Assembly (NCBI GenBank): GCA_025360045.1
Contig: JANYCY010000086.1
Location: 1 to 53,608 of the forward strand
Direction of reading: 5' to 3'
Length of the DNA stretch: 53,608 nucleotides
Source: Janthinobacterium sp.
GTDB lineage: Bacteria > Pseudomonadota > Gammaproteobacteria > Burkholderiales > Chitinibacteraceae
In this document: positions 5,297-37,492 of the stretch, in pieces
Position numbering within the stretch: position 1 is the first letter of the stretch
How the letters are laid out: each line of letters opens with the position of its first letter
Translations under genes and position numbers: made by a program
Notes under the pieces: model-generated
The model's database searches: none
Told to the model about the DNA's origin: nothing
What the model saw: only the letters and a program-made list of their open reading frames with translations

Positions 5297-6817
5297 ATGT
5301 TTGATATCAAAGGCCTTGTAAACTCACTCTTTCAGCCAAACACACAAGAAGGTGTTTTTGATCTGAAATCCGCCACAATATTTATGGAAGAGCTGCCTGA
5401 GAGTGATATTTTACAAGCGCAAATAGAGATCGTTAAGGCACTAAAACAGCTCAATAGCACTCCAAAAGTCAGTATGAGTGAGCGCTTTAAAACCATCCCC
5501 TACCTTGAAGAAAAAGCGCAGCCACTACAGAACCATTTACTGGATATCTATCATGGCCGCCTCATTGAAGAAGGCATCAGCGCCCACCAAGTTTTGCCCA
5601 CTATATTAAGTTTTTGGCATGAAATGGCAACCGGATATCTGAGCTGTATTAAACAAGTAAATCAAAAAAAGTTTACACTTATACAAGAAAAAAAAATTGA
5701 GCTTTTTACGCTAAGAGCAATGGAGCTATACGCTATCCAAGCGCAATACTCTTATATGCGCCACTTAGAAATTGATCATCAAATTTGGCGCAATCTCAAT
5801 CGCCTGTATCACTTTTCAGAACAAAGCAATTTTGCCAATAAATCACTAAATACAGAAAATACCAGTATTCAACGCTGCTATATTCAAGCCCTCATGCTAT
5901 CGCTTTCTAACCCAGAAAAACTTCAATCCGCCCAAATAGAGCTCATTGCAATCTGGCTACAAAAATGGAGTGCAGAGATTAAGCTTGAAACAGCGCTACA
6001 AACACAACAACACTTATTTGCGATTAATTTAACCGGCACATCGGCCCCCAAGCGTATCCGCCGCGATATGGTGGGAGAAAACTGGCGCTATTGGTCAGCA
6101 GATCCTATTACAGAACAAATCCACCGCCTCATTACACAGCTCAAACAAGGTGAAACGCCTAATAGTTTAGGCCTCCCCACAGAAACAGCATCCCCCATTA
6201 ATTTAGAACAATTACAGATTCTCAGCTCTCTATGGTCACGCGACGCAGAAACACCTGTACGCAAACACCAAAGGCAAAACAATAATAAATCAATTCGAGT
6301 CATTATCGGGATTCAAAATACTATTCCCTATATGACTCAACAAGGAAAAACATCCCGCAATAGTGGCGATCATATCAGCACCGAAAAATGGGAATTAGGC
6401 GACGAAAGTACCAGCGGCTTTGGCTTAAATTACCATAGTGACACTCAACTCGAAATTGGTGAATTGCTAGGCTTAGCCAATCTAAGCAACTACCCATTTA
6501 CCATTGGTATAGTGCGCCGCTTCAATCGAAGTCATAAAGGCTTTGTGAGTGTTGGGGTAGAAACACTCACACAAAGCCCTGTAATGGTTGAGCTCACCCC
6601 CCTACTCAGTGAAAACAGCTTTCAGTGCATTTATGCCCCCGAAGGCCCTAGCAGCAGCCCCGCGCGTTTTCTGATCATCCCCAATGCGGCATACTCTGAA
6701 AACAGAGAATATAAATTCACTGCCCAAGGTAAAAGCTACCGCATTCGGCTATCCCCTGCGCTTGAGCACACCCCCTCTTTTGTACTGGCTAAATTTACCG
6801 TGCTAGAAAAACTTTAA
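5297..6817 (+). CDS. Hypothetical protein with possible C-terminal PilZ-like domain
   Basis: A 506-aa soluble protein that I do not recognise as a named family. Residues 1-310 look mostly helical, with no signal peptide or membrane segment. The C-terminal part fits the order of a PilZ c-di-GMP-binding barrel: RKHQR at 322-326 (RxxxR), a predicted strand IRVIIGI, DESTSG at 369-374 ([D/N]xSxxG), then EIGELLGL, FTIGIVRR and VGVETL. The gap between the two binding motifs is longer than usual because of an inserted polar loop. If real, this would be a c-di-GMP receptor. The ATG follows AAGGTAGGACCACGCA, a good ribosome-binding site. It is monocistronic, with tRNA-Ser downstream. The coding call is firm; the domain call is inference. 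Confidence 0.8.
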   Translation: MFDIKGLVNSLFQPNTQEGVFDLKSATIFMEELPESDILQAQIEIVKALKQLNSTPKVSMSERFKTIPYLEEKAQPLQNHLLDIYHGRLIEEGISAHQVLPTILSFWHEMATGYLSCIKQVNQKKFTLIQEKKIELFTLRAMELYAIQAQYSYMRHLEIDHQIWRNLNRLYHFSEQSNFANKSLNTENTSIQRCYIQALMLSLSNPEKLQSAQIELIAIWLQKWSAEIKLETALQTQQHLFAINLTGTSAPKRIRRDMVGENWRYWSADPITEQIHRLITQLKQGETPNSLGLPTETASPINLEQLQILSSLWSRDAETPVRKHQRQNNNKSIRVIIGIQNTIPYMTQQGKTSRNSGDHISTEKWELGDESTSGFGLNYHSDTQLEIGELLGLANLSNYPFTIGIVRRFNRSHKGFVSVGVETLTQSPVMVELTPLLSENSFQCIYAPEGPSSSPARFLIIPNAAYSENREYKFTAQGKSYRIRLSPALEHTPSFVLAKFTVLEKL

Positions 6818-24369: not shown

Positions 24370-26148
24370 ATGATGAGCAATCTAATCGAAATTAAAGTCC
24401 CCGATATCGGCGGCCATGACAATGTGGATATCATCGAAGTCTTCGTTAAAGTCGGCGACACGGTGGCCGTTGAAGAATCCTTGATTGCGCTAGAAACCGA
24501 TAAAGCAACGATGGAAGTGCCTTCCACTCATGCCGGTGTAATTAAAGAAATCAAAGTCGCCGTGGGCGGCAAAGTATCCGAAGGTAGCTTATTGGTGATT
24601 TTAGAAGTGGCAGCCACTGCCACAGCTACGCCAGCCGCAGCACCAAGTCCAGCCTCAACTGCCGCCCCAGCACCACAAGCCGCTCCCGTTGCTGGCAGCC
24701 ATAGCGGCACAGCCGACTACGAATGCGAAATGGTGGTACTCGGTGGTGGCCCCGGTGGCTACTCCGCGGCTTTCCGTGCTGCTGACCTTGGCATGAAAAC
24801 CATCGTCGTTGAGCGCTTTTCCAAGCTTGGCGGTGTGTGTCTGAATGTGGGTTGTATTCCTTCTAAAGCGCTGCTGCACAATGCGGCGGTGATTGATGAA
24901 GTGAAACACTTGGCGGCCAACGGGATTAAATTTGGCGAGCCAGAGATCGATATCGACGCGCTACGTGGCTTTAAAGAAAAAGTCATTGGCAAGCTGACTA
25001 CTGGCTTAGCCGGTATGGCCAAGGCCCGTAAAGTAGAATTCGTACGTGGTGTAGCGCGCTTTATTGATCCTCACCATATGGAAGTGCAAATCACTTCGGG
25101 TGATGGCAAAGAAGTGACTGGCGAGACCAAAATCATCAAGTTCCAGAAAGCGATTATCGCTGCTGGCTCTTCAGTATTTAAGCTACCCTTTGTGCCGAAT
25201 GATCCACGCGTGGTCGATTCAACTGGCGCGCTGGAGCTCAAATCAGTGCCAAAACGCATGCTAATTTTGGGCGGCGGGATTATTGGTCTGGAAATGGGCA
25301 CGGTTTACTCCACACTGGGCGCACGCCTTGATGTGGTGGAAATGCTCGACGGCCTGATGCAAGGCGCGGATCGCGACTTGGTTAAAGTATGGGAAAAATG
25401 GAATACCCATCGCTTTGACAACATCATGCTCAAGACCAAAACCGTAGGGCTAGAAGCCAAGGAAGACGGCATTTGGGCCACTTTTGAAGGCGAAAACGCC
25501 CCGAAAGAGCCGCAATGCTACGACCTCGTGCTGCACGCTACTGGCCGTGTGCCTAACGGCGGTAAAGTCGGCGCAGAAAACGCCGGTGTGATCGTGACTG
25601 ATCGCGGCTTTATCCCCGTCGATAATCAAATGCGCACCAACATCCCGCATATTTTTGCAATTGGCGATTTGGTTGGCCAGCCTATGCTGGCACACAAAGC
25701 CGTGCACGAAGCGCACGTTGCTGCTGAAAATGCAGCGGATCACAAAGCCTTCTTTGATGCCCGCGTGATTCCTGGCGTCGCCTATACCGATCCGGAAGTC
25801 GCCTGGGTAGGCGTGACCGAAGATGAAGCCAAGAAGAATGGCATCAACTACGGTAAAGGTGTATTCCCATGGGCCGCATCCGGCCGCGCCATTGCCAATG
25901 GCCGTGACGAAGGCTTTACCAAATTGATCTTTGATCAAGACACCAAGCAAATCATCGGCGGCGCGATTGTTGGCCCGCACGCTGGCGATATGATCGGTGA
26001 GATCTGCCTTGCCATCGAAATGGGTTGCGATGCCGTGGATATCGGCAAAACCATCCACCCTCACCCAACCATGGGCGAATCAATCGGGATGGCCGCCGAA
26101 GTATTCAAAGGCGTATGTACCGATCTACCACCGCAGAAAAAGAAGTAA
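24370..26148 (+). CDS. lpdA: Dihydrolipoamide dehydrogenase (E3) with N-terminal lipoyl domain
   Basis: A 592-aa E3 that reoxidises the dihydrolipoyl groups of E2 with FAD and NAD. Residues 1-80 form a lipoyl domain (Lys45 in ETDKATMEV), followed by an Ala/Pro linker and the flavoprotein proper: [17 protein letters not shown] for [16 protein letters not shown] with the redox disulfide, [12 protein letters not shown] for NAD, and HPHPTMGES with the catalytic His-Glu pair. A lipoyl-bearing E3 is the form known from Neisseria (p64k). The start is ATG at 24370, with another ATG one codon later. It is separated from aceF by the family C palindrome, and a strong terminator follows. Confidence 0.96.
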
Positions 26149-26161
26149 CACTTTTTCTGTG

Positions 26162-26188
26162 AAAAAACCCAGCTTGCTGGGTTTTTTT
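26162..26188 (+). terminator. Terminator of the aceE-aceF-lpdA operon
   Basis: ACCCAGC/GCTGGGT stem flanked by A6 and T7, 13 bp after the lpdA stop codon. Confidence 0.92.
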
Positions 26189-26554
26189 ACGCCTATTTTT
26201 TTAAGCAGGGCAGATCACTCAAGCCATTACCATGCCGTTTTGCAGTGCGGGTAAAACCCGCCGGACGTTGGCATGAAATTACGAACACATCGGGTTTAAT
26301 CCGCGATACGAATAACACAGCACCTGCAAATGTGCGGCCCCTCATCCTCCTACACCACAAAGCGCCCACCTTATAGGGGCCTTTTTTTATTTCCAGCCAT
26401 AAACTTACAAAATACCGACAAAATTTACAAACTAATAGCCTAAAAACTTAAAAAACATCTACCGTTAAATTACAAGAACCTTGAATGATTTTTAGACCAA
26501 CCTAAGCTACTTTAAGGGAAGAGATGAATATTCCGCTCAGAAGGTAATCTACGA
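26189..26554. other. Intergenic region upstream of the hybrid kinase-EAL gene
   Basis: This ~366-bp stretch contains a decayed GTAAAACCCGCCG repeat fragment near 26250 and a weak hairpin with T7 near 26355-26390. The last 160 bp are AT-rich and should hold the promoter of the signalling cluster, though no boxes can be assigned with confidence. No gene is seen. Confidence 0.5.
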
Positions 26555-29500
26555 ATGCTCGCTACCTTAAATGAAATTGCCCAACAGCAACTGCTTGACC
26601 AGCTCCCCTGCTGCATTTATCTATGTAATGCCAACGGGCAGTGCCGCTACACCAATACTGCCCTGCAAGGGATGTTTGGATTATCGCAGATAGAGTGCCT
26701 CGACTATGGGTGGTTAAAAAAACTGCATCCAGAAGATAGCAAAGCCGTCCATGAGCAGTGGCAAAAAGCCACCGTTACTCAGCGTGAGTTTGAGATTTCT
26801 TTTCGCATTTTAAAATCCCATCACGAAGTTCGTTTTTTACGCTCTAAAACAAAGCCTATCTGGGATGCCCACGGCCAGATTTCTAGCTTTATAGGTACGG
26901 TGGAAGACCTTACGCCTACGCTTGCACTCAATTTGCAAGAGCAAGATGACAGCCGTTTTTATACCATTATCAAAGCCTCCCCCGTGCCCAATGCTATTTA
27001 CGATACAGGGGGAAAAATAATCTATCTCAATCCCGCCTTTAGTCGTACTTTTGGCTATTTTCTGAACGATATTCCCAAACTAGAAGACTGGTGGAGCCAA
27101 GCGTATCCTGATCCAGCTTATCGGCAATGGGTGATGGAGCAAAGTTTGCTCCCCCAAACAGACGATTACGTTTTTCCCACTTTAGAATTACGTGTCTGCT
27201 GCAAAGATGGCCTTTATAAAACGGTGACCGTAAGCCGTACCCTCTTGCCATTTGAACACGCCATTTTGATTACGCTGCTTGATCTCACCGAGCTACATCA
27301 GCAAAAAGCGACCTTACAAGAGCGGGCACAGCGTTATCGGCAGTTATTCGATAATGCCGATCTATCGATCTGGAATCAGGACATGACGACCCTCTTAACC
27401 CATATCACCGCACTAAGGGAAGCGGGTATTACTGATTTGGCGGCTTACCTCGATGAAACACCGACCGCTTTACTCAATATGATCAGCATGTTTCGCGTGA
27501 TTGATATTAATCCCGCCACCCTTTTGCTGTTTGAGGGCCAGAGCAAAGCTGAATTTATGCGGGGATTTACCTCACTTTTTGGACAAGATGCCCTTGAAGT
27601 CATTCGTCAAGAGCTACTGGCTTTTTGGCGAGGAGACGCTATTTTTCGCAGCGAAATCAACCTTAAAACCTTACAAGGCAAATCTTTTCCTGCGCTGCTC
27701 TCCTACCCTATTCCTACCTCGATGGATGAAGCGGGAATTGTTCCTGTGAGCATTCAAGATATTAGTGAGCTAAAAGAGAGTGAAAGCCGCTGGCAATTTG
27801 CCATCGAGGGTTCTGGTGATGGGCTTTGGGATTGGAATGTTCAAGACAATACGATTTTCTACAGCCGCCGCTGGAAAGAAATGCTTGGCTTTTCTGACGA
27901 TGAAATTAGCAATACTTTTCATGAATGGGAAAAACGCGTTTACCCCGCTGATTTCCCTCGTGTAATTGCCAATGTACAAGCGCACCTCAATGGCAACACA
28001 CCGCACTTCTGTCATGAATACCGGATTCACAATAAAGATGACAGTTGGAAATGGATCATGGATAGGGGCATGGTCGTTGCGCGTGATATGGAAGGCTTGC
28101 CACTGCGTGTGATAGGCACGCTACATGATATTACCGAACGCAAAAACAATGAGAATGCACTCTTAGCCAATCGCAGACAGCTGGCTGGCATGATCGATTC
28201 GGCAATGGATGCCATTATCACCACCGATGGCCAATTCAACATTATTCTATTTAACCAAGCGGCAGAAAACATGTTTGGTTATTGCGCGCAAAAAGTGCTG
28301 TACACCTCCATCGAGCAATTACTCCCTAAATCACAGGCCGCCAAGCACGGCGAGCTGATGCATCAATTTGCCAAGCAAAGTGAAGGGCATCGAAAAATGG
28401 GCGGGAATACCGCGCACCAAGTGATGGGACTGCACGCCGATGGACATGAGTTTCCGGTAGAAGTGGCCATTTCTTATCTAGATAATTTTGGCAACCCGAT
28501 TTACACCGCCATGGTGCGCGATATTACCGATCGTTTGGCTTATGAAACCAGCTTGCTGCAATTGGCCACAACATTAGAGCATCGCGTCATCGAGCGCACA
28601 CAGGAGTTAGAAGCGGCCAAATTACTCGCGGAAAATGCCACCCATGCCAAGAGTGCATTCTTAGCCAATATGAGCCATGAAATTCGCACCCCGCTCAATA
28701 GCGTGCTGGGCATGGCGCATCTGGCACAGCTCACCCCTTTAAACCCCAAGCAACAAGATTACCTACAAAAAATCACGCTATCTGGCACGCATCTGCTTGA
28801 TCTTATCAACGACATTCTCGATTTTTCAAAAATAGAAGCCGGTAAGCTTGAAATTCATAGTCATGATTTTGACCTGCCCGAGCTACTAGATAATGTTTAC
28901 GAGTTGATCCAACAAAAAGCAGAAGAAAAAGGCTTACAGCTCATGATTACAATGGGTGAGCCAATGCCGACTTTTTTTCACGGTGATGAATTGCGTATTA
29001 AGCAAGTGCTGCTTAATTTACTCAGCAATGCCATTAAATTTACCGGCAGCGGCAAAATCACGCTCAGCAGCCTCTTTGATCCCTCTTCTGGTCAAATTTC
29101 ATTTAGCGTACAAGATACCGGCGTCGGCATTACCGCCAGTGCTCAAACCCAGCTATTTCAATCTTTTCAGCAAGCGGACAACTCCATTACCCGTAAATAC
29201 GGCGGCACGGGGCTGGGGCTGGCCATCAGCAGCCAATTGGTGCAATTGATGGGCGGCGAATTAACCGTAGAAAGCCAGCTTGACGCTGGGAGTGAATTTA
29301 AATTTTCACTCACACTACCGCAAGCACACTCGCCATCACAAACACACCCAGCGGTCACTGATATCGATGCCTCTTTTCTGGCTGGCAAACGTATTTTATT
29401 GGCCGATGATCATCCCTTTAATCAACAAATTGGGGCGGAGTTGTTACAGATAATGGGGGCCGATGTGGTGATTGCTAATCATGGCCTTGAAGCCGTGCTG

Positions 29501-31465
29501 CTCGCCAGCCAAAGCACCTTCGATGCTATTTTGATGGATGTGCAAATGCCTGAAATGGATGGCATTACCGCCTGCCAAACCCTCAGAAAAAACCCAGAAT
29601 TTAGCGCGCTGCCTATTATTGCCATGACCGCCAATGTGTCTAGAGAATACCGGCAGCACTGCCTCAACGCAGGCATGAATGATTTTATTGGCAAGCCAGT
29701 TCAAGCAAAAAAACTCTACCGAACACTGGCTTACTGGTTGGGATCCCAGTCCAAACCCAACCATAATACCCAAGACTTAGAGCCAGCCGAATTAATCTAT
29801 TCGCCAGAGCCCAGTACTGATTCCGCTTTGATTAATCTGACCGAAATGCAAAACATGCTGGGCGACGATCCACTGCACCAAAGAAAATACTGTGCAAAAT
29901 TTGCCCAAGCCATGCAAGAAGGGCTAAGCATCATCACCGAGGCCCAGCTCAATAGTGCAGCGTGTCTTAGCCCTGAAAACGGCGAAAATAGCCCCTTAAG
30001 AAACAAAGAGCAACCGTTTGTTTCTTATGAAATTGCACAAGAATGCCATCGCTTAAAATCGATTGCCCGCACCGTTGGCGCCATGCGCTTAGGTCAGCAA
30101 CTTGCTAAGCTGGAAAAAATCGACCCCAACACTGACCCTAAGTGGCTATTAAGTGAAATTAAGCAACTGCATATTTTGCAGCAGCAAAGCTGTGAACAAC
30201 TACAGCAAATGGGCTTGCTCAATAGCACGCCAGCCCCCCTTGCTACTTCAAATGAACAGCATCAATCCATCAGCGTGCTACTGGTGGATGATGATCATTT
30301 TATGCTGGAAGTCATACAGCAACATTTAAGCGATTTAGGCATTGCGCAAGTTATTCCCTTTCTAAATGCAAAATCAGCCTTAGCACGCCTCGCCCAAGCT
30401 AATCCTCCCAACTGGGTATTTTGTGATCTACAAATGCCCGATATGGATGGCGTCGCCTTTTTGCGGCAACTTGGCGTTCTCCATTACACCGGCAATATCG
30501 CGATCCTATCCGCCATGGACAGGCAAGTGCTAAAAGCGGCTGAATTACTCACCCATTCTTTTAATCTCAATCTCGGTGGTGTACTTACCAAGCCGGTTAG
30601 AAAGAGCGAGCTGGCCACACTACTACTCCAACACCCCGCTCAAGCCACCTTAAAAAATCATATCGAGCCAGAGCTGCAGCTAATTGAAGAAGAACTACGC
30701 AGCGGCCTAAGTAAGGGCGAAGTCGAGCTGTATTACCAACCCAAAGTCAGTACCAGTCAGCGGATTGTGATTGGTGCAGAAAGCTTGGCTCGCTGGCGTC
30801 ATCCTAGCCGTGGCTTATTAGGACCACACCTCTTTGTACCTGCCATTGAGGCGCTGGGCTTAATTGATGAGCTTACCTTTTGCGTGCTACGCCAAGCTGC
30901 AAGGCAGCTTCATATCTGGCAGGAACAAGGCGAACACATCAAGCTTTCGATCAATGTATCGATGGGTAACCTTCATTGCTTAGAGCTACCCGAGCGCTTC
31001 GCCGCCATCTTGCAAGAAAACCATGTTAGCCCCGAATACATTACGCTCGAAATTACCGAAACCCAGCTTTCCCACGATTATGTGCTGAGCCTCGACATCC
31101 TCACCCGCTTGCGCATTATGGGGTTTGGCCTATCGGTGGATGACTTTGGGACCGGGTTTTCTACCATGGAGCATTTGATTCAAATCCCCTTTACCGAGCT
31201 AAAAATCGATAAGGCTTTTGTGCGTGGCGCCACGCAAGATCTCTCTGCCAAAACCATACTGGAACACAGCGCCAACCTAGGTCGAAAATTTGCACTCAAC
31301 CTAGTCGCTGAAGGCGTTGAAACGCAAGACGATTGGGACTTGGTCGCCTTAATTGGCTGTAATGAAGTGCAAGGCTACCTCATCGGCCGCCCCATGCCCG
31401 CTGCCGACTTTATGAGCTGGAAAAAAAATTGGGAGGCAATAGCCCCTCCCAACCAAGCACACTGA
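26555..31465 (+). CDS. Multi-PAS hybrid histidine kinase fused to HPt, second receiver and EAL domain
   Basis: A 1636-aa cytoplasmic signalling protein without membrane segments. Order by approximate residues: five PAS/PAC units (10-125, 130-250, 260-400, 408-525, 538-657), HisKA with phospho-His708 in SHEIRTP, HATPase (NAIKF near 825, [10 protein letters not shown]), receiver 1 with Asp995 in LMDVQMP, HPt with His1165 in CHRLKS, receiver 2 with Asp1291 in FCDLQMP, and EAL (1380-1630). The EAL signature reads ESLARW with Glu1409; LEITE, VDDFGTG, LKIDK, AEGVE and EVQGY are all present, so it looks catalytically competent for c-di-GMP hydrolysis. It resembles a BvgS-type kinase joined to a RocR/VieA-type response regulator in one chain. 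A response regulator and a second hybrid kinase follow. The ligand is unknown. Confidence 0.93.
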   Translation: MLATLNEIAQQQLLDQLPCCIYLCNANGQCRYTNTALQGMFGLSQIECLDYGWLKKLHPEDSKAVHEQWQKATVTQREFEISFRILKSHHEVRFLRSKTKPIWDAHGQISSFIGTVEDLTPTLALNLQEQDDSRFYTIIKASPVPNAIYDTGGKIIYLNPAFSRTFGYFLNDIPKLEDWWSQAYPDPAYRQWVMEQSLLPQTDDYVFPTLELRVCCKDGLYKTVTVSRTLLPFEHAILITLLDLTELHQQKATLQERAQRYRQLFDNADLSIWNQDMTTLLTHITALREAGITDLAAYLDETPTALLNMISMFRVIDINPATLLLFEGQSKAEFMRGFTSLFGQDALEVIRQELLAFWRGDAIFRSEINLKTLQGKSFPALLSYPIPTSMDEAGIVPVSIQDISELKESESRWQFAIEGSGDGLWDWNVQDNTIFYSRRWKEMLGFSDDEISNTFHEWEKRVYPADFPRVIANVQAHLNGNTPHFCHEYRIHNKDDSWKWIMDRGMVVARDMEGLPLRVIGTLHDITERKNNENALLANRRQLAGMIDSAMDAIITTDGQFNIILFNQAAENMFGYCAQKVLYTSIEQLLPKSQAAKHGELMHQFAKQSEGHRKMGGNTAHQVMGLHADGHEFPVEVAISYLDNFGNPIYTAMVRDITDRLAYETSLLQLATTLEHRVIERTQELEAAKLLAENATHAKSAFLANMSHEIRTPLNSVLGMAHLAQLTPLNPKQQDYLQKITLSGTHLLDLINDILDFSKIEAGKLEIHSHDFDLPELLDNVYELIQQKAEEKGLQLMITMGEPMPTFFHGDELRIKQVLLNLLSNAIKFTGSGKITLSSLFDPSSGQISFSVQDTGVGITASAQTQLFQSFQQADNSITRKYGGTGLGLAISSQLVQLMGGELTVESQLDAGSEFKFSLTLPQAHSPSQTHPAVTDIDASFLAGKRILLADDHPFNQQIGAELLQIMGADVVIANHGLEAVLLASQSTFDAILMDVQMPEMDGITACQTLRKNPEFSALPIIAMTANVSREYRQHCLNAGMNDFIGKPVQAKKLYRTLAYWLGSQSKPNHNTQDLEPAELIYSPEPSTDSALINLTEMQNMLGDDPLHQRKYCAKFAQAMQEGLSIITEAQLNSAACLSPENGENSPLRNKEQPFVSYEIAQECHRLKSIARTVGAMRLGQQLAKLEKIDPNTDPKWLLSEIKQLHILQQQSCEQLQQMGLLNSTPAPLATSNEQHQSISVLLVDDDHFMLEVIQQHLSDLGIAQVIPFLNAKSALARLAQANPPNWVFCDLQMPDMDGVAFLRQLGVLHYTGNIAILSAMDRQVLKAAELLTHSFNLNLGGVLTKPVRKSELATLLLQHPAQATLKNHIEPELQLIEEELRSGLSKGEVELYYQPKVSTSQRIVIGAESLARWRHPSRGLLGPHLFVPAIEALGLIDELTFCVLRQAARQLHIWQEQGEHIKLSINVSMGNLHCLELPERFAAILQENHVSPEYITLEITETQLSHDYVLSLDILTRLRIMGFGLSVDDFGTGFSTMEHLIQIPFTELKIDKAFVRGATQDLSAKTILEHSANLGRKFALNLVAEGVETQDDWDLVALIGCNEVQGYLIGRPMPAADFMSWKKNWEAIAPPNQAH

Positions 31466-31530
31466 CAAATTGATACCCATTTTTCACTTTTTCAAATCAT
31501 CACAACGCTTCCTTTTACAGGATATTTTTC

Positions 31531-32664
31531 ATGAATGAAAAACCACTGGTACTCGTCGTTGATGATGATCTATTTATGCTGGATTTTATTTTCGACGCCC
31601 TGAGTGAAACGTGTAATGTCATCACCGCTGAAAACGGCAAAACCGCCCTGCAACTGGTGCAACAACAGCACCCCAAGCTAGTCTTGGCCGATGTAAAAAT
31701 GCCAGAAATGGATGGGTATGAGTTATGTCGACAAATCAAAGATGATTTTGATATCTGCGATACACCCGTGCTGTTTTTATCAGCACTCGATGAGATCGAA
31801 GATCGGCTACAAGGCTTTGATGTAGGCGGGGAAGATTTTGTGCTCAAGCCCGCCAACCCTAAAGTGCTACAAGCTAAAGTCGCCCATGTTTTGCAACTGA
31901 TTGAAGAGCGGCAGCAATTAAAATCGCAAGCCCAATATGCCACCAATACCGCCATGCTAGCCATGGCAAGCATGAGTGAAACTGGCTTATTGATTGAAGG
32001 CATCAAGTATTTTAATAATTGTACGACGCCACTCGATTTGGCCAAAGCCCTCATCATGGCCATCGCACTATTTGAAGTTGACAGCGTAGTTGAGTTAATT
32101 CTACCCAATGGAGAATCGCTCGCCATGAATGTGCGCGGCCCTGCCAGTGCGCTAGAAACATCGATCATGCACCATATGTCGACCATGGATCGCATCACGC
32201 AATTTAAAAGTCGAATGGCCATTAGCTACCCGCATATTCGCGCCTTTATCAGCAATATGCCCGAACATAATCCTGACCTCTGCGGCCGCTTGCGCGACAA
32301 CTTAGCCATCTTAATAGAATCCACAGAATATCGACTCGAGGCCCTCAATATCATGGTGCAAGCCAAGCAACGCGATATTGCCATTGCAGAAACCATCAAA
32401 TCACTGACAACAGCCCTGGGCAATATCGATGAAAAACAAAGAAACGGCCGCGCCTCAGTCGCTATTATTTTAAGCACGGTCACCGCCAGAATAGAAGCCG
32501 CCTTAGTCGGCTTACAGCTCACAGAGCGCCAAGAAACGTCCTTAATCGATATTGTTCGTTTTGGCTTAGAAGACGTTTCCAACACCCTACATGCCGATGC
32601 CGACTTTCAAGATCAACTTAGCGAGGCAATTAAAGCACTACAGAACACCGCGGCGAGTAGTTAA
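31531..32664 (+). CDS. Response regulator with unrecognised C-terminal output domain
   Basis: A 377-aa protein. Residues 5-125 are a receiver: the acidic pocket is VVDDD, phospho-Asp54 is in LADVKMPEMDG, Ser/Thr is in LFLSALD, and the lysine is in VLKPA. Residues 130-377 match no output domain I know. They contain a helical linker, an alpha/beta segment that might be GAF-like (TTPLDLAKAL to ELILPNG), then long helices with heptad character. There is no helix-turn-helix, GGDEF, EAL or HD-GYP motif. AGGA lies 8 nt before the ATG, 65 bp after the hybrid kinase-EAL gene, so the two are probably co-transcribed. It is a likely alternative phosphate acceptor for one or both neighbouring HPt domains. 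Confidence 0.88.
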   Translation: MNEKPLVLVVDDDLFMLDFIFDALSETCNVITAENGKTALQLVQQQHPKLVLADVKMPEMDGYELCRQIKDDFDICDTPVLFLSALDEIEDRLQGFDVGGEDFVLKPANPKVLQAKVAHVLQLIEERQQLKSQAQYATNTAMLAMASMSETGLLIEGIKYFNNCTTPLDLAKALIMAIALFEVDSVVELILPNGESLAMNVRGPASALETSIMHHMSTMDRITQFKSRMAISYPHIRAFISNMPEHNPDLCGRLRDNLAILIESTEYRLEALNIMVQAKQRDIAIAETIKSLTTALGNIDEKQRNGRASVAIILSTVTARIEAALVGLQLTERQETSLIDIVRFGLEDVSNTLHADADFQDQLSEAIKALQNTAASS

Positions 32665-32899
32665 GCCAACGAAGCTAATGCTAGTGCAGATGAAACCCAA
32701 TCCTATCAACTTAAGCAAAACCAATCGGATTGATGCCCACGTAGGTTGATGGGACTGGGATTCACCCAAGCTACGCTCCAACCATCAAGGGTGATGGCCT
32801 TGAAAGCTCGGCTTATTGCATGGTTGGCTATTATTGTGGAGACAAAAGTAGCCATATTTTGAGCATTGTTCTCCCCCACCTGCATCAATGGAGAGAGGC

Positions 32900-35800
32900 A
32901 TGACACGCTGGCTATTGCGCTCGCTCAGCACCCGAGTCACCCTTTTTACGCTACTTATTTTTATTATCAGTATCTGGGTGCAAGTCTTCTATGCAAGGCG
33001 GATTCTGCACGAAGATATGCAGCGCTTACTCAACGATCAGCAGTTTTCCACGGCCACAATTGTTGCGACCGATATCAATCAACATCTGCAAGATCGGCTT
33101 GAAGCACTTGCACGCATAGCAGCAAGCATCCCCCCTTCCCGCTTTAGCCATGACGATGAGCTGCAAGATCTTTTAGAAAAAAATACCCTATTCCAGTCTT
33201 TATTTAATGGCGGCACTTTCATCACCCAGATAGCAGGCACGGTAACGGCCTCGGTTCCTCGCTCAGCCAAGCGACGCGGCGTTAATTATATCGATAGTGA
33301 TTTTATTGCCGCCACGCTGCGATCAGGAAAAACCATGATCGGCCAGCCCATCATGGGCAGGCAGTTGCATGCCCCTATTTTTGTGATGACCGTGCCGATC
33401 AAAAACCAGCAAGGCCAAATTATTGGCTGCTTGGCAGGCGTCATCAATCTAGGCTTACCCAATTTTTTAGATACCATTATTGGCCACCGCTACGGCCAAA
33501 CAGGTGGCTATCTCTTGATCGCCCCGCAGCAACGCTTAATTGTCACTGCCACGGATAAACGACTAATTATGACCCACACTCCAGCGCTAGGAGTGAGCCC
33601 CCTCGTTGATCGATTTATTCAAGGCGATGAGGGTACGGGTATTCTGGTTAACACCCTCAATATTGAAGTACTCGCCGCCGCTAAACGAGTCCCTGTGGCT
33701 GGCTGGTATGTCGCGATCTCCCTACCTACCTCTGAAGCTTTTGCGCCGATTCTAAGCATGGAGCGGCGAATGTTCTTGATCACGGGCGTGATGACACTGC
33801 TCGCAAGCTTACTCAGCGGCTGGTTGCTGAGACGCCAGCTTTCGCCGCTACGTTCTGCTGTCAGCCTTGTGGCCCAAATGGCCCATACCGATCACCCGCT
33901 ACCCCCGCTGCCCATCGAAAGAGATGATGAAATTGGCCAGCTGCTCAGCAGCTTTAATCAGCTGCTATCCACCTTGGCAGAACGAGAAAAGGCCCTCAAA
34001 AAGAGTGAATCCTTTATTAGAACCATCACCGAAAACATCCCCGGTATGCTGGCCTATTGGACCACCGAACTACACTGCTCTTTTGCCAATAAGCCTTATT
34101 GCGCATGGTTTGATCGCACTTTAGAACAAATGCAAAATATCCCCATGCAGGAATTATTAGATGACAGGCTATTTGCAAAAATAGAACCCTATGTTCGTGG
34201 CGCCTTGCAAGGTGAAGAGCAACACTACGAGCGCACCATGACCAAAGCCAATGGTGAAAGCGTTTATCTTTTTGCCCAATATATTCCGCACAAAATAGAA
34301 AACGTGATTCAAGGTTTTTTTGTATTACTCACCGACATCACCACCATCAAGCACGGCCAAGAGCAGCTTAGATTAAGCGACATTACCCTCAAAGCGATTT
34401 CCCAAGGTGTGCTCGTTGGTAATGCAGAGCAAAATATTATTTCAGTCAATCAAGCCCTGCTGACCATTACCGGCTTTAGTAAAGAAGACTTCCTAGGGCG
34501 TAATTGCCACTTTTTACAAGGGCCACTTACCAGTCCTGATACCGTCGCTCAGATCCGCGTCGCCCTGCGAAATGGATTGGAATTCTCTGGTGAAATTCTC
34601 AACTATCGCAAAGATGGCAGCGTCTTTTGGAATGATTTAAGCATTTCCCCCGTCTTCAATAAACAGGGGGAAATGACTCACTTTATCGGCATTACTCGAG
34701 ATATCACCACTCGAAAAAATGCCGAAGCTGAGCTACTCGCCAATCAAGCACAGCTGCAAGGCATGATAGACACCGCGATGGATGCCATTATCAGCACCGA
34801 TGTGCAATTTAATATCATCTTATTCAATGCCGCAGCTGAGAAAATGTTTGGCTATCCTGCGGATAAGATCTTGGGCTGCCCCATTGAAGCGCTCATCCCC
34901 ATTAAATTAGCCCTCAGCCACCGCGAGCAAATGCACGAATTTGCCAAGCTAAAAGAAAACCCACGACTCATGCGCGGCCGTTCAGTGCGACCCGTCTTGG
35001 GGCGGCATGCAGATGGCCATGAGTTCCCTGCCGAAGTGACGATTTCTTATTTAGAAAACGAAAAACATCCCATTTTCACCGCCATGGTGCGCGACATCAC
35101 CGAGCGCAAAGCACTTGATGAAGCCTTGATGCAATTTGCCACCACACTAGAGCTGCGCGTCATTAGCCGTACCCAAGAATTAGAAACCGCCAAGCTGCAA
35201 GCAGAAAACGCCAACCAAGCAAAGAGTGCTTTTTTAGCCAATATGAGCCATGAAATTCGCACCCCACTCAATAGCGTATTAGGCATGGCGCATCTAGCCC
35301 TAATGACCGATTTAAACAGCAAACAACGTGACTATCTGCAAAAAATCAGCGTATCGGGCACGCTGCTGCTCGATTTAATCAACGACATTCTTGATTTTTC
35401 AAAAATAGAAGCGGGCAAGCTCGAGCTGAACCCCAGTAACTTTAGCTTGCCGGAGCTGATCCATCATGTTTGCGGGCTTATCCAGCACAAAGCAGTAGAA
35501 AAAGGCTTGGCACTCCACATTATCATCGATGAAAAAATCCCCAAAGCGCTGTACGGCGATGATTTACGCATCAAACAAGTACTGCTTAACCTGCTCAGCA
35601 ATGCCATTAAATTTACCGCGCACGGCGCTATTACCCTGTCGGCAACGGCAATGCCTAGCGAGGATCATATTTTATTTAGCATTGTCGATACCGGCATCGG
35701 CATTTCCCCATCCGCCCAAACTCAACTCTTCCAATCTTTTCAACAGGCGGATAACTCGATTACCCGCAAATACGGCGGTACCGGCTTAGGCTTAGCGATC

Positions 35801-36736
35801 AGCCGCCAGTTGGTAGAACTCATGGGAGGGAAACTTGGCATGCAGAGCCAACTCGGCCAAGGGAGCGAATTTAATTTTCAGCTTTGCCTGCCTCAAGCCG
35901 CTGCGGACGTTCCCTCTCCTCAAGATGCAAGCAGCCCAAACACACTCTTTTTACAAGGTAAACACATACTACTGGCCGATGATCACCCGTTTAACCAGCA
36001 AATAGGCGCTGAATTACTCGAACTCATGGGGGCAAAAGTAATGATCGCCAATAATGGCCTTGAAGCGGTGCAATTAGCTAACCAATCCAGCTTCGATGCT
36101 ATTTTAATGGATGTGCAAATGCCTGAAATGGATGGAATTACCGCCTGCCAAACCCTCAGAAAAAACCCCAAATTCGATCACACGCCAATTATCGCCATGA
36201 CGGCCAATGTATCAGCGGAATATCGACAACGCTGTATTGCAGCAGGAATGAATGACTTTATTGGTAAACCCATCCAAGCTAAAAAACTATATCTGACATT
36301 AATGATCAGCTTTAAAAAACAAGAAAATGTCGCCATGACGCAAGTCATGCTCGATACAAAAACACCTGCATCATCAAAAGAATCAATGCCAACACAAGTT
36401 GAATTAATCAACATATTAGAATTGCAATCCATGATCGGGGATAATACTGAACGCCAATTAAAATACTGCATCAAATTTGCCGCCGCCATGCAAGAAGGGC
36501 TTGCAAGTATAGATCAAGCCCAAACCAATCATGATTACCTATTGCTTAGCCAAGAGTGTCATCGTTTAAAGGCCATTGCACTCACCATCGGAGCAATGCC
36601 ATTAGGCGCATTACTAGCAAAAATGGAAAAAGAAGAGCAAGCTTTAGAAGAAAAAATAAATGATATCGCAGCATTAAAATCATTATTTCAACAAAGCTGC
36701 GAGCAGCTTCGACGCATGCAATTACTTGATCGCTAG
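32900..36736 (+). CDS. Membrane hybrid histidine kinase with a LOV-type PAS domain
   Basis: A 1278-aa inner-membrane kinase. TM1 is at about 13-33, a periplasmic Cache-like sensor follows, and TM2 is near 290-312, then HAMP, a PAS (370-490), a LOV-like PAS (491-605), another PAS (620-740), HisKA with His784, HATPase, a receiver with Asp1071 in LMDVQMP, and HPt with His1221 in CHRLKA. The LOV-like unit reads [12 protein letters not shown] with Cys536, and Asn568 (NYRKDG) and Asn578 (FWND) fall at the flavin-contact spacing of YtvA. The glutamine expected at 599 is threonine. I chose ATG 32900 because GGAG lies 6 nt upstream; ATG 32888 has no site. It shares its PAS-kinase-receiver-HPt half with the 26.5 kb kinase. 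Confidence 0.92.
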
Positions 36737-36797
36737 TTAAACACGGCAGCGCATAAGTTTTCCTGATAATGTCGATTTACCAAACTCATTATAAATA

Positions 36798-36861
36798 CCC
36801 TAGGCGGGGTACTTAGCTGCGTATTGATTCAGCATGGCTCGCGGCTTGCACCCGCCCTAGG
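36798..36861. repeat. Short GTAGGGCGGG-family hairpin, diverged copy (family B)
   Basis: It runs from CCTAGGCGGGGTAC to GCACCCGCCCTAGG, with the inner TTCAGCATGGCTCGCGG close to the loop of the copy at 41210-41270. A solitary right end (ATCCGCCCTACAA) follows near 36898-36910. It lies between the LOV kinase and the peroxidase-like gene. Confidence 0.7.
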
Positions 36862-36967
36862 AATAACATTTTGCTTACGTTAATAAGATTGGCTTTATCC
36901 GCCCTACAATACGAATTGAACAGGCTGCTCATCCTCTTTAATTAAGCTCCCCCTCAAAGGATTCCCC

Positions 36968-37492
36968 ATGCGCTTACTTGCCCTACTTAGTTTTTGCAGC
37001 TCAATCAGCATGGCAGCCTGCCCGCCGCTCTTGGATTACCAGACAAAAACACTAAAAGGAGAATCTTTTGATTTTTGCAGCTATAGCGGCAAGCCTATTC
37101 TGGTGGTCAATACCGCCAGCAAATGCGGCTTTACCCCGCAATTTGATAAATTAGAAAAAATCTATGCCAAATATAAGGAACAAGGCTTATTGGTGGTTGG
37201 ATTTCCATCGAATGATTTCAAACAAGAGCTAGCCGACAATACGGAAATTGGCGACTTTTGCCGCCTTACCTATTTTGTAGAATTCCCCATGCTAGAGAAA
37301 TCTAGCGTGCGCGGCACAGACGCTAATCTCTTATTTAAGCGATTAACAGCGGCATCAGATACCTCCCCAAAATGGAACTTCTACAAATACCTGATTGCCC
37401 CAGATGGCAAAACAGTCACCGCCTATAGCTCGATCACCGAGCCGGACGATAAGGAAATTATTAGTAAGATTGAAGGCTGGCTGAAGAAATAA
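36968..37492 (+). CDS. Secreted glutathione-peroxidase-like protein
   Basis: A 174-aa thioredoxin-fold peroxidase of the GPx family with an N-terminal export signal (MRLLALLSFCSSISMAA), so it is probably periplasmic; MAAC is a weak lipobox. The catalytic cysteine is in NTASKCGFTPQF and the conserved Trp-Asn pair is in KWNFYKYL. The family motif usually written GFPCNQFGxQE is GFPSNDFKQE here, so the usual catalytic glutamine position holds Asp. It would reduce peroxides, most likely with thioredoxin-type donors rather than glutathione, as known for bacterial GPx proteins. AAGGA lies 6 nt before the ATG. It appears monocistronic. Confidence 0.88.
   Translation: MRLLALLSFCSSISMAACPPLLDYQTKTLKGESFDFCSYSGKPILVVNTASKCGFTPQFDKLEKIYAKYKEQGLLVVGFPSNDFKQELADNTEIGDFCRLTYFVEFPMLEKSSVRGTDANLLFKRLTAASDTSPKWNFYKYLIAPDGKTVTAYSSITEPDDKEIISKIEGWLKK

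What the first reader, a model, noticed from the sequence alone, without database searches (positions are those of the whole stretch)
26555..36736. Three-gene cluster as a candidate undescribed signalling system
The hybrid kinase-EAL protein, a response regulator with no recognisable output domain and the LOV hybrid kinase are consecutive and on one strand. Both kinases end in HPt domains and could feed the shared regulator at 31531 or the EAL receiver. One kinase is soluble and multi-PAS, the other is membrane-bound with a periplasmic sensor and a possible photosensor. Together they could integrate external, redox and light cues into c-di-GMP level. The 223-bp gap before the third gene leaves open whether it has its own promoter.
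Basis: inference. Interest (0 to 1): 0.82.

Follow-up and report, generated by a model that had tools for sequence, protein, structure and literature searches.

The report
Two-kinase relay controlling cyclic di-GMP
Three neighbouring genes in an aquatic bacterium look like one signalling relay in which two related sensor proteins feed a built-in enzyme that should destroy the messenger cyclic di-GMP and a regulator whose output half matches no described family; the wiring resembles known systems, and the regulator is the new part.

Summary
The three genes are real, consecutive and on one strand. Gene 1 is PAS-kinase-REC-HPt-REC-EAL: an unorthodox kinase fused to a RocR-like c-di-GMP phosphodiesterase, so its HPt is internal, not terminal. 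Gene 2 is REC plus a half without a Pfam match, predicted GAF-like plus coiled coil. Gene 3 is a dCache-HAMP-PAS-LOV-PAS-kinase-REC-HPt membrane kinase.
Core: genes 1+2, in Iodobacter, Deefgea, Chitinibacter, Chitinilyticum and Vogesella. Gene 3, seen only in Iodobacter among 18 genomes searched, is a duplicate of gene 1's kinase. At this site in nine Iodobacter genomes: five intact, two with a damaged member, one pair, one none. One genome keeps gene 3 but lost gene 1's ATPase domain.
Of 80 loci of the gene 2 family, 37 lie near hybrid or other kinases and 23 near c-di-GMP enzymes, two of these as REC-EAL fusions; 41 near neither.
Best reading: a Roc/Vie/Pvr-type branched phosphorelay with two inputs, one phosphodiesterase and a new accessory regulator. 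Phosphotransfer untested; light sensing possible, redox sensing unsupported. New variant of a known kind.

The parts
26158..26191 (+). terminator-like hairpin after lpd (15 pairs, T-rich tail), likely upstream boundary of the cluster
   Evidence: consensus match only; 14 terminator-like sites found in the region against a shuffle mean of 12.6
26555..31465 (+). gene 1 (HKEAL): multi-PAS unorthodox hybrid kinase fused to a REC-EAL phosphodiesterase, 1636 aa, no clear membrane segment
28646..28843 (+). gene 1 HisKA (aa 698-763, His708 in HEIRTP)
28982..29320 (+). gene 1 HATPase_c (aa 810-922); missing in the G002 orthologue
29393..29725 (+). gene 1 REC1
30047..30049 (+). gene 1 internal HPt histidine (aa 1165, HRLKS)
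30275..30622 (+). gene 1 REC2, alpha-1 helix like that of gene 2's REC
30689..31393 (+). gene 1 EAL domain with the searched catalytic motifs (RocR-like together with REC2)
31531..32664 (+). gene 2 (RR): REC + C-terminal half without a Pfam family, 377 aa
31549..31881 (+). gene 2 REC; D11, D12, D54, S84, K106 invariant in the 22 sequences of A1
32008..32355 (+). gene 2 GAF-like domain (aa ~160-275); G252, R253, R255, D256 invariant in 60 of 60 aligned sequences
32356..32658 (+). gene 2 C-terminal antiparallel helical hairpin (aa ~276-376, predicted)
32665..32887 (+). 223-bp gap holding fragments of interspersed repeats
32888..36736 (+). gene 3 (HK3): membrane hybrid kinase, dCache-HAMP-PAS-LOV-PAS-HisKA-HATPase-REC-HPt, 1282 aa
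33014..33721 (+). gene 3 dCache_1 sensor
34403..34708 (+). gene 3 LOV domain; cysteine (aa 540) kept in 7 of 7 gene 3 proteins, usual glutamine is threonine (aa 603) in 7 of 7
35966..36292 (+). gene 3 REC
36473..36697 (+). gene 3 C-terminal HPt (His1225, HRLKA)

Best explanation
A branched His-Asp phosphorelay that sets c-di-GMP breakdown. Gene 1 autophosphorylates on its DHp histidine and passes phosphate to REC1, then its internal HPt, then REC2, which gates the fused EAL phosphodiesterase. The same HPt also serves the REC of gene 2. Gene 3 arose in the Iodobacter stem lineage by duplication of gene 1's PAS-DHp-ATPase-REC-HPt part; it lacks REC2-EAL and carries a new dCache/HAMP/PAS/LOV input, so it is a second sensor feeding the same HPt/REC2/gene 2 branch. 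Gene 2 is a REC-GAF-like-coiled-coil protein without a recognised DNA-binding or enzyme domain, most likely a phosphorylation-switched accessory or scaffold protein that tunes the kinases or the phosphodiesterase. Shown from sequence: domains, motifs, paralogy, presence/absence pattern, family context. Inferred: every phosphotransfer step, the sign of control and the role of gene 2.
For: Gene 1 REC2-EAL matches RocR nearly end to end (E 1.3e-61, RocR 4-388); the EAL, DHp and HPt motifs searched are present in gene 1. Genes 1+2 form a pair in other genera. The module order HK-REC-HPt / REC-EAL / REC-gene 2 half is kept with the gene break moved: L096 and L098 encode an HK-REC-HPt gene followed by a REC-EAL-REC-gene 2 half fusion (Pfam for L096). 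Gene 3's kinase core is one clade (100/99), sister to the Iodobacter gene 1 clade (98/95), the two joined at 100/98; the two are 73% identical over DHp-ATPase-REC against 47% for the next kinase of the genome. Among own-genome REC rows, REC2 ranks 1st of 81 for gene 2's alpha-1 segment and gene 2 ranks 2nd for REC2's. G002 lost gene 1's ATPase domain in frame but keeps DHp, REC1, HPt, REC2 and EAL beside an intact gene 3. Same-strand c-di-GMP enzyme ORFs near the gene 2 family: 21 within 1.5 kb against 10 at 1.5-7.5 kb.
Against: No phosphotransfer, enzyme or expression data. The alpha-1 match does not extend to the wider family: over 17 modules, own enzyme-REC/regulator pairs score no better than shuffled pairs (2986 of 10000 shuffles reach the total), so shared phosphorylation is suggested only for the HPt-EAL modules. 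For REC2's alpha-1 another REC of the genome (L228) ranks first. 41 of 80 family loci have neither a same-strand kinase nor a c-di-GMP enzyme within 1.5 kb. G007 lacks gene 3 and G001 lacks the cluster at this site and has no close gene 2, so the module is dispensable. Hpt scores are weak.
Confidence: 0.6

Rival explanations
1. Two insulated systems: gene 1 controls its own EAL, gene 3 has diverged to other partners, and proximity is only the trace of the duplication.
For: G007 keeps genes 1+2 without gene 3; gene 3's sensor diverges faster than its core (dCache 39-84% identity to G000 against 71-90% for DHp/ATPase over six genomes); the G000 gap is 223 bp.
Against: REC1 and gene 3's REC share 11 of 13 alpha-1 residues and the cores 73%, which predicts cross-talk; gaps are 39-90 bp in four other genomes; in G002 gene 3 is the only complete kinase of the cluster.
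Confidence: 0.2
2. Gene 2 is a phosphate sink or a VieB-like inhibitor that binds the kinases and damps the relay.
For: No output domain in Pfam, REC residues intact; [quoted passage not shown]
Against: The VieB paper lists tetratricopeptide repeat domain as a keyword; gene 2's half has no TPR match and a GAF-like predicted fold. A mere sink would not obviously need the invariant GRxRD and E150.
Confidence: 0.35
3. Gene 2 is a ligand sensor: the GAF-like domain binds a small molecule (possibly a nucleotide) and the coiled coil acts on a target outside the cluster.
For: GAF-like fold (best PDB match KdpD GAF, E 8.8e-4, TM 0.63 of the target; then phytochrome-cyclase structures); G252, R253, R255, D256 invariant in 60 of 60 aligned sequences; family members without kinases or c-di-GMP enzymes nearby (41 of 80).
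Against: No ligand, pocket or target is known; GAF-like domains can serve as mere dimer modules (recalled); the invariant residues may be structural.
Confidence: 0.25
4. Gene 3 is a working blue-light kinase and light is the main input.
For: LOV match E 1.3e-28; cysteine kept in 7 of 7; glutamine-deficient LOV receptors, some with threonine, exist and one was shown to respond to light (PMC9098866, passages).
Against: The usual arginine varies (H, R, S, R, N, N, N) and the usual glutamine is Thr in 7 of 7; dCache and two other PAS give other inputs; gene 3 is absent in G007 and split in G005.
Confidence: 0.3

Closest known systems
Roc system of Pseudomonas aeruginosa (RocS kinases, RocR REC-EAL, RocA regulators)
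   Same: HK-REC-HPt kinases; two kinases acting on several regulators including a REC-EAL phosphodiesterase (PMC12051241, search listing and passages); gene 1's REC2-EAL matches RocR nearly end to end.
   Different: Kinase and phosphodiesterase are one protein here; the further regulator has no DNA-binding match but a GAF-like half.
VieSAB of Vibrio cholerae
   Same: Kinase, phosphodiesterase regulator and a third REC protein in one putative operon (PMC4352251, abstract and passages).
   Different: VieA is a separate protein with an HTH; VieB has a TPR (keyword of the paper); gene 2's half is GAF-like; a second kinase is present here.
PvrSR/RcsCB of P. aeruginosa PA14
   Same: Two sensors on one branch, PvrS acting upstream and likely via RcsC, with phosphodiesterase PvrR (PMC3842833, abstract and section 7); the NCBIfam PvrR model matches gene 1 with 334 bits, best stretch aa 1237-1622, below its 580 cut-off.
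   Different: Four separate genes; a transcriptional regulator RcsB; no gene 2-like protein known to me.
RpfC/RpfG (HK-REC-HPt plus REC-HD-GYP), recalled
   Same: Kinase with HPt and a REC-linked c-di-GMP phosphodiesterase; REC-HD-GYP genes occur beside members of the gene 2 family.
   Different: HD-GYP instead of EAL; no third regulator. From memory, not tested.

Membership tests
RocR/PvrR-type REC-EAL phosphodiesterase | REC followed by EAL with catalytic motifs | tested here: met
   RocR 3sy8 E 1.3e-61, RocR 4-388; AESLARW, SINVS, EITET, DDFGTG, LKIDK, EGVET, EVQGY present in gene 1; of 14 homologues checked by looser patterns one (L073) lacks the QGY pattern
RocR/PvrR-type REC-EAL phosphodiesterase | stand-alone response regulator | tested here: not met
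   fused behind HK-REC-HPt in gene 1; it should work like, but is not, a stand-alone RocR
RocR/PvrR-type REC-EAL phosphodiesterase | c-di-GMP hydrolysis | not testable with these tools
   needs enzyme assay
Unorthodox (HK-REC-HPt) kinase | DHp His, ATPase domain, REC Asp, HPt His in one chain | tested here: met
   both kinases, Hpt Pfam scores weak; the G002 gene 1 orthologue lacks the ATPase domain
VieB-type auxiliary regulator | REC plus TPR (TPR from the paper's keyword; its C-terminal place is recalled) | tested here: not met
   REC present; no TPR hit in 20 homologues; GAF-like predicted fold
VieB-type auxiliary regulator | binds and inhibits the cognate kinase | not testable with these tools
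   needs biochemistry
LOV photoreceptor | PAS/LOV homology with adduct-forming cysteine | tested here: met
   Cys in 7 of 7 gene 3 proteins
LOV photoreceptor | active-site glutamine | tested here: not met
   Thr in 7 of 7; glutamine-deficient LOV receptors are described (PMC9098866, passages)
LOV photoreceptor | flavin photochemistry | not testable with these tools
   needs purified protein
GAF domain | sequence match to a GAF family model | tested here: not met
   no Pfam GAF hit in 20 members
GAF domain | GAF fold | tested here: inconclusive
   predicted model (pLDDT 88.2, pTM 0.64) matches KdpD GAF at E 8.8e-4, prob 1.00, TM 0.63 of the target, 0.39 of the query; the only match at E <= 0.001

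The most novel reading that the evidence does not exclude
Gene 2 founds an unnamed class of accessory response regulators, REC-GAF-like-coiled coil, that act as phosphorylation- and ligand-gated tuners of c-di-GMP relays with EAL, HD-GYP or GGDEF outputs, mainly in Betaproteobacteria; the invariant GRxRD could be the ligand site (perhaps for c-di-GMP itself, closing a feedback loop). In Iodobacter a duplicated kinase with a glutamine-less LOV domain was plugged into this relay.
Probability: 0.25. Interest if true: 0.7.

Novelty: new variant of a known kind. Interest (0 to 1): 0.5.

Why it matters
It shows how a second input may be added to a c-di-GMP relay: copy the kinase, change the sensor, keep the specificity surfaces. 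Natural variants (no gene 3, no ATPase in gene 1, no cluster) offer ready controls. The output half of gene 2 has no Pfam model here and recurs beside c-di-GMP enzymes, so one biochemical study could name the function of a whole family.

Tried and rejected
The gene 2 half against Pfam (20 homologues, best E 0.0047) and the PDB by sequence profile gave only chance-level matches; the best PDB profile hit (E 0.027, a helical stretch of a cytolytic delta-endotoxin) was rejected as chance. Rfam at gathering threshold: 0 matches in 26100-37100. Promoter-like sites: 9 found against a shuffle mean of 16.7, none in the 223-bp gap; this neither shows nor excludes a promoter. The idea that the alpha-1 match between enzyme REC and gene 2 REC is a family-wide rule was rejected (2986 of 10000 shuffles). 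The idea that the trio is an ancient block was rejected: gene 3's N-terminal third was sought in 18 genomes (9 Iodobacter, 9 others) and outside Iodobacter gave no close match (best 31% in G025, in another gene, not followed). The second neighbourhood control (343 other genes) uses a different gene picker from the foreground, may hold false ORFs and comes from loci of 16 kb or more only; the same-method comparison of distances in that call is the safer one. I looked for model coordinates in the Python box to measure contacts of the invariant residues; none were held.
Full report
What is there. The window is contig C88 of a 4.02 Mb, 97-contig genome. Between lpd (24370-26148) and a glutathione-peroxidase-like gene (36968-37492; name given from its sequence, not from a call) lie three + strand genes: 26555-31465, 31531-32664 and 32888-36736. 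A terminator-like hairpin follows lpd at 26158-26191.

Gene 1. Pfam gives PAS repeats, HisKA 698-763, HATPase_c 810-922, REC 947-1057, a weak Hpt match around 1159-1188, a second REC and EAL 1379-1613. The HPt is therefore internal. The REC2-EAL part matches RocR nearly end to end (E 1.3e-61) and carries the EAL motifs that I searched for. The best reading is a RocS-like kinase and a RocR-like phosphodiesterase in one chain.

Gene 2. REC 7-117 keeps its conserved residues. The remaining 250 residues have no Pfam hit in the window protein and only scattered weak ones (best E 0.0047) in 20 homologues. AlphaFold2 models from alignments of 30 and 60 sequences have mean pLDDT 87.9 and 88.2 and pTM 0.51 and 0.64: REC, long helix, an alpha/beta domain of GAF-like topology, then a long antiparallel helical hairpin. 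Foldseek with the C-terminal half alone finds one PDB match at E <= 0.001, the GAF domain of KdpD (E 8.8e-4, TM 0.63 of the target), followed by phytochrome structures. Over 60 aligned sequences E150, G252, R253, R255 and D256 are invariant.

Gene 3. dCache_1, HAMP, PAS, LOV, PAS, HisKA, HATPase_c, REC and a C-terminal HPt. The LOV cysteine is kept in 7 of 7 gene 3 proteins; the usual arginine varies (H, R, S, R, N, N, N) and the usual glutamine is threonine in 7 of 7. Glutamine-deficient LOV receptors, including threonine forms, are described, and one was shown to respond to light (PMC9098866, passages). Light sensing is thus open. I found nothing on redox sensing.

Conservation. Nine Iodobacter genomes (G000 and the 8 same-genus genomes) were compared at this site. 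Genes 1-3 intact: G000, G003, G004, G006, G008 (5 of 9). G002 (one contig): all three, but gene 1 has lost about aa 257-694 and 793-902, including the ATPase domain, in frame. G005: gene 3 split into two ORFs. G007: genes 1+2 only, with the same flanks. G001: none; lpd is followed by the LPMO gene, and its best gene 2 match is a distant homologue elsewhere. In the 28 other same-family genomes, gene 2 orthologues of 56-70% identity occur in 4 (G018, G013, G030, G026), each beside a gene 1 homologue and without gene 3 in the 20 kb read.

Origin of gene 3. A tree of 29 kinase cores (G002's truncated gene 1 was left out) puts the seven gene 3 cores in one clade (100/99), sister to the seven Iodobacter gene 1 cores (98/95), the two joined at 100/98 inside the gene 1 family. 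Some outgroup branches are long and their places unsure. In the own genome, gene 3 is 73% identical to gene 1 over DHp-ATPase-REC and the next kinase 47%. Gene 3 is thus best read as a local copy of gene 1's kinase half with new sensors.

Wiring evidence. In 82 aligned REC rows of the own genome (79 fetched loci plus 4 window domains, one of 83 not recovered; two rows repeat window domains), gene 2's alpha-1 segment is closest to REC2 of gene 1 (6 of 13 identical, rank 1 of 81). For REC2's alpha-1, L228 ranks first and gene 2 second. Over the whole REC domain the result is uneven: REC2 ranks 26th for gene 2, but gene 2 ranks 1st for REC2. REC1 and gene 3's REC share 11 of 13. That alpha-1 reports partner choice is recalled general knowledge. 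Gene 2 and REC2 share 4-6 of 13 positions in the 13 of 15 genomes or loci where the script read both (not read: G013, L075). The test failed to generalise: over 17 modules the own pairs score no better than shuffles (2986 of 10000); the five highest scores are the five HPt-EAL modules of this family.

Family context. The gene 2 half was sought in genome contigs: 89 of 145 pattern matches confirmed, best 80 kept; by my count of record titles about 58 of the 80 bear betaproteobacterial names (genus placement partly recalled). Within 1.5 kb on the same strand, 37 of 80 have a histidine kinase and 23 of 80 a c-di-GMP enzyme or a fusion to one; 21 have both and 41 neither. Of the 23, seven (L070-L076) are gene 1 homologues, two (L096, L098) are fusions, three have EAL neighbours (L086, also GGDEF; L105; L111), and the other eleven have HD-GYP or GGDEF neighbours, eight of them checked with Pfam as REC-HD or REC-GGDEF proteins (L092, L094, L116, L124, L135, L113, L118, L119). 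L096 and L098 encode REC-EAL-REC-gene 2 half fusions directly after an HK-REC-HPt gene. Same-strand c-di-GMP enzyme ORFs: 21 within 1.5 kb against 10 at 1.5-7.5 kb. A second control, 20 of 343 other genes in the flanks, gives Fisher p 6e-8, or 7e-5 without the seven gene 1 loci; it uses a different gene picker and the genes are not independent. Enzyme detection used single-sequence searches and motifs, so some will be missed.

The 223-bp gap. Gaps between genes 2 and 3 are 223 (G000), 241 (G008), 90 (G003), 39 (G004), 49 (G006) and 41 bp (G002). Parts of the G000 gap match 30 other places of its genome, so its length is best explained by interspersed repeats within an operon; an own promoter is not excluded.

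Mechanism and comparison. I commit to a branched relay: gene 1 (and, by inference, gene 3) to HPt, to REC2-EAL and to gene 2. [quoted passage not shown] G002 recalls the RcsC case: a relay protein, here without its own ATPase, next to an intact kinase. Gene 2 is not a VieB by its C-terminal half, but could work like one.

Novelty. Searches for Iodobacter with c-di-GMP (2 papers), REC-GAF/HD-GYP/census (13 papers, 10 listed), LOV with EAL and hybrid kinase (1 paper) and orphan regulators with HD-GYP (7 papers) listed no paper that by title or start of abstract describes this cluster or the gene 2 family. Apart from passages of the one paper (PMC6848086) only listings were seen, and the library lacks most subscription journals. 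The system is a new variant of a known kind; the gene 2 half is the part worth pursuing.

Noticed in passing
32665-32887: The gap carries short repeat fragments that match 30 other places in the genome; G008 has different DNA with an inverted repeat at the same gap.
   Followed up: partly
L060-L069 (gene 2-like ORFs): A distant gene 2 subfamily (about 24-30% identity) ends in an acidic-hydrophobic tail of the type D/S-D/S/N-x-I/M/L-x-F, and in some members the REC looks degenerate.
   Followed up: no
L125:6003-7583 and the ORF upstream of the match in L134: A 527-529 aa REC-(gene 2-like middle)-HisKA-HATPase kinase sits just before a gene 2 homologue, as if the GAF-like part also serves as a kinase sensor (Pfam for L125).
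   Followed up: partly
L061:8195-12407 and L065:6045-10005: In G001 and G004 a distant gene 2 homologue neighbours a hybrid kinase; the G001 one shows a LOV-like TCRFMQG motif and a glutamine at about the usual site.
   Followed up: no
L228 (G000:C71:121690-122090): A REC in a 738-aa frame shares 7 of 13 alpha-1 residues with REC2, more than gene 2 does, and could be another target or cross-talk partner.
   Followed up: no
L050:10829-12745 and L055:6828-8744: Gene 2 homologues of about 42% lie beside a 638-aa protein that Pfam calls radical SAM with a weak B12-binding match (L050 scanned; L055 by look of the sequence).
   Followed up: no
L043:5203-9089 (G005): Gene 3 is broken into two ORFs in G005: decay or assembly error.
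   Followed up: no
L157 (G001:C14): Site without the cluster: lpd, then the LPMO gene, then the peroxidase gene; in the window the last two are in the other order.
   Followed up: yes
5297-6817 +: 506-aa ORF without any Pfam hit at E 1e-5.
   Followed up: no
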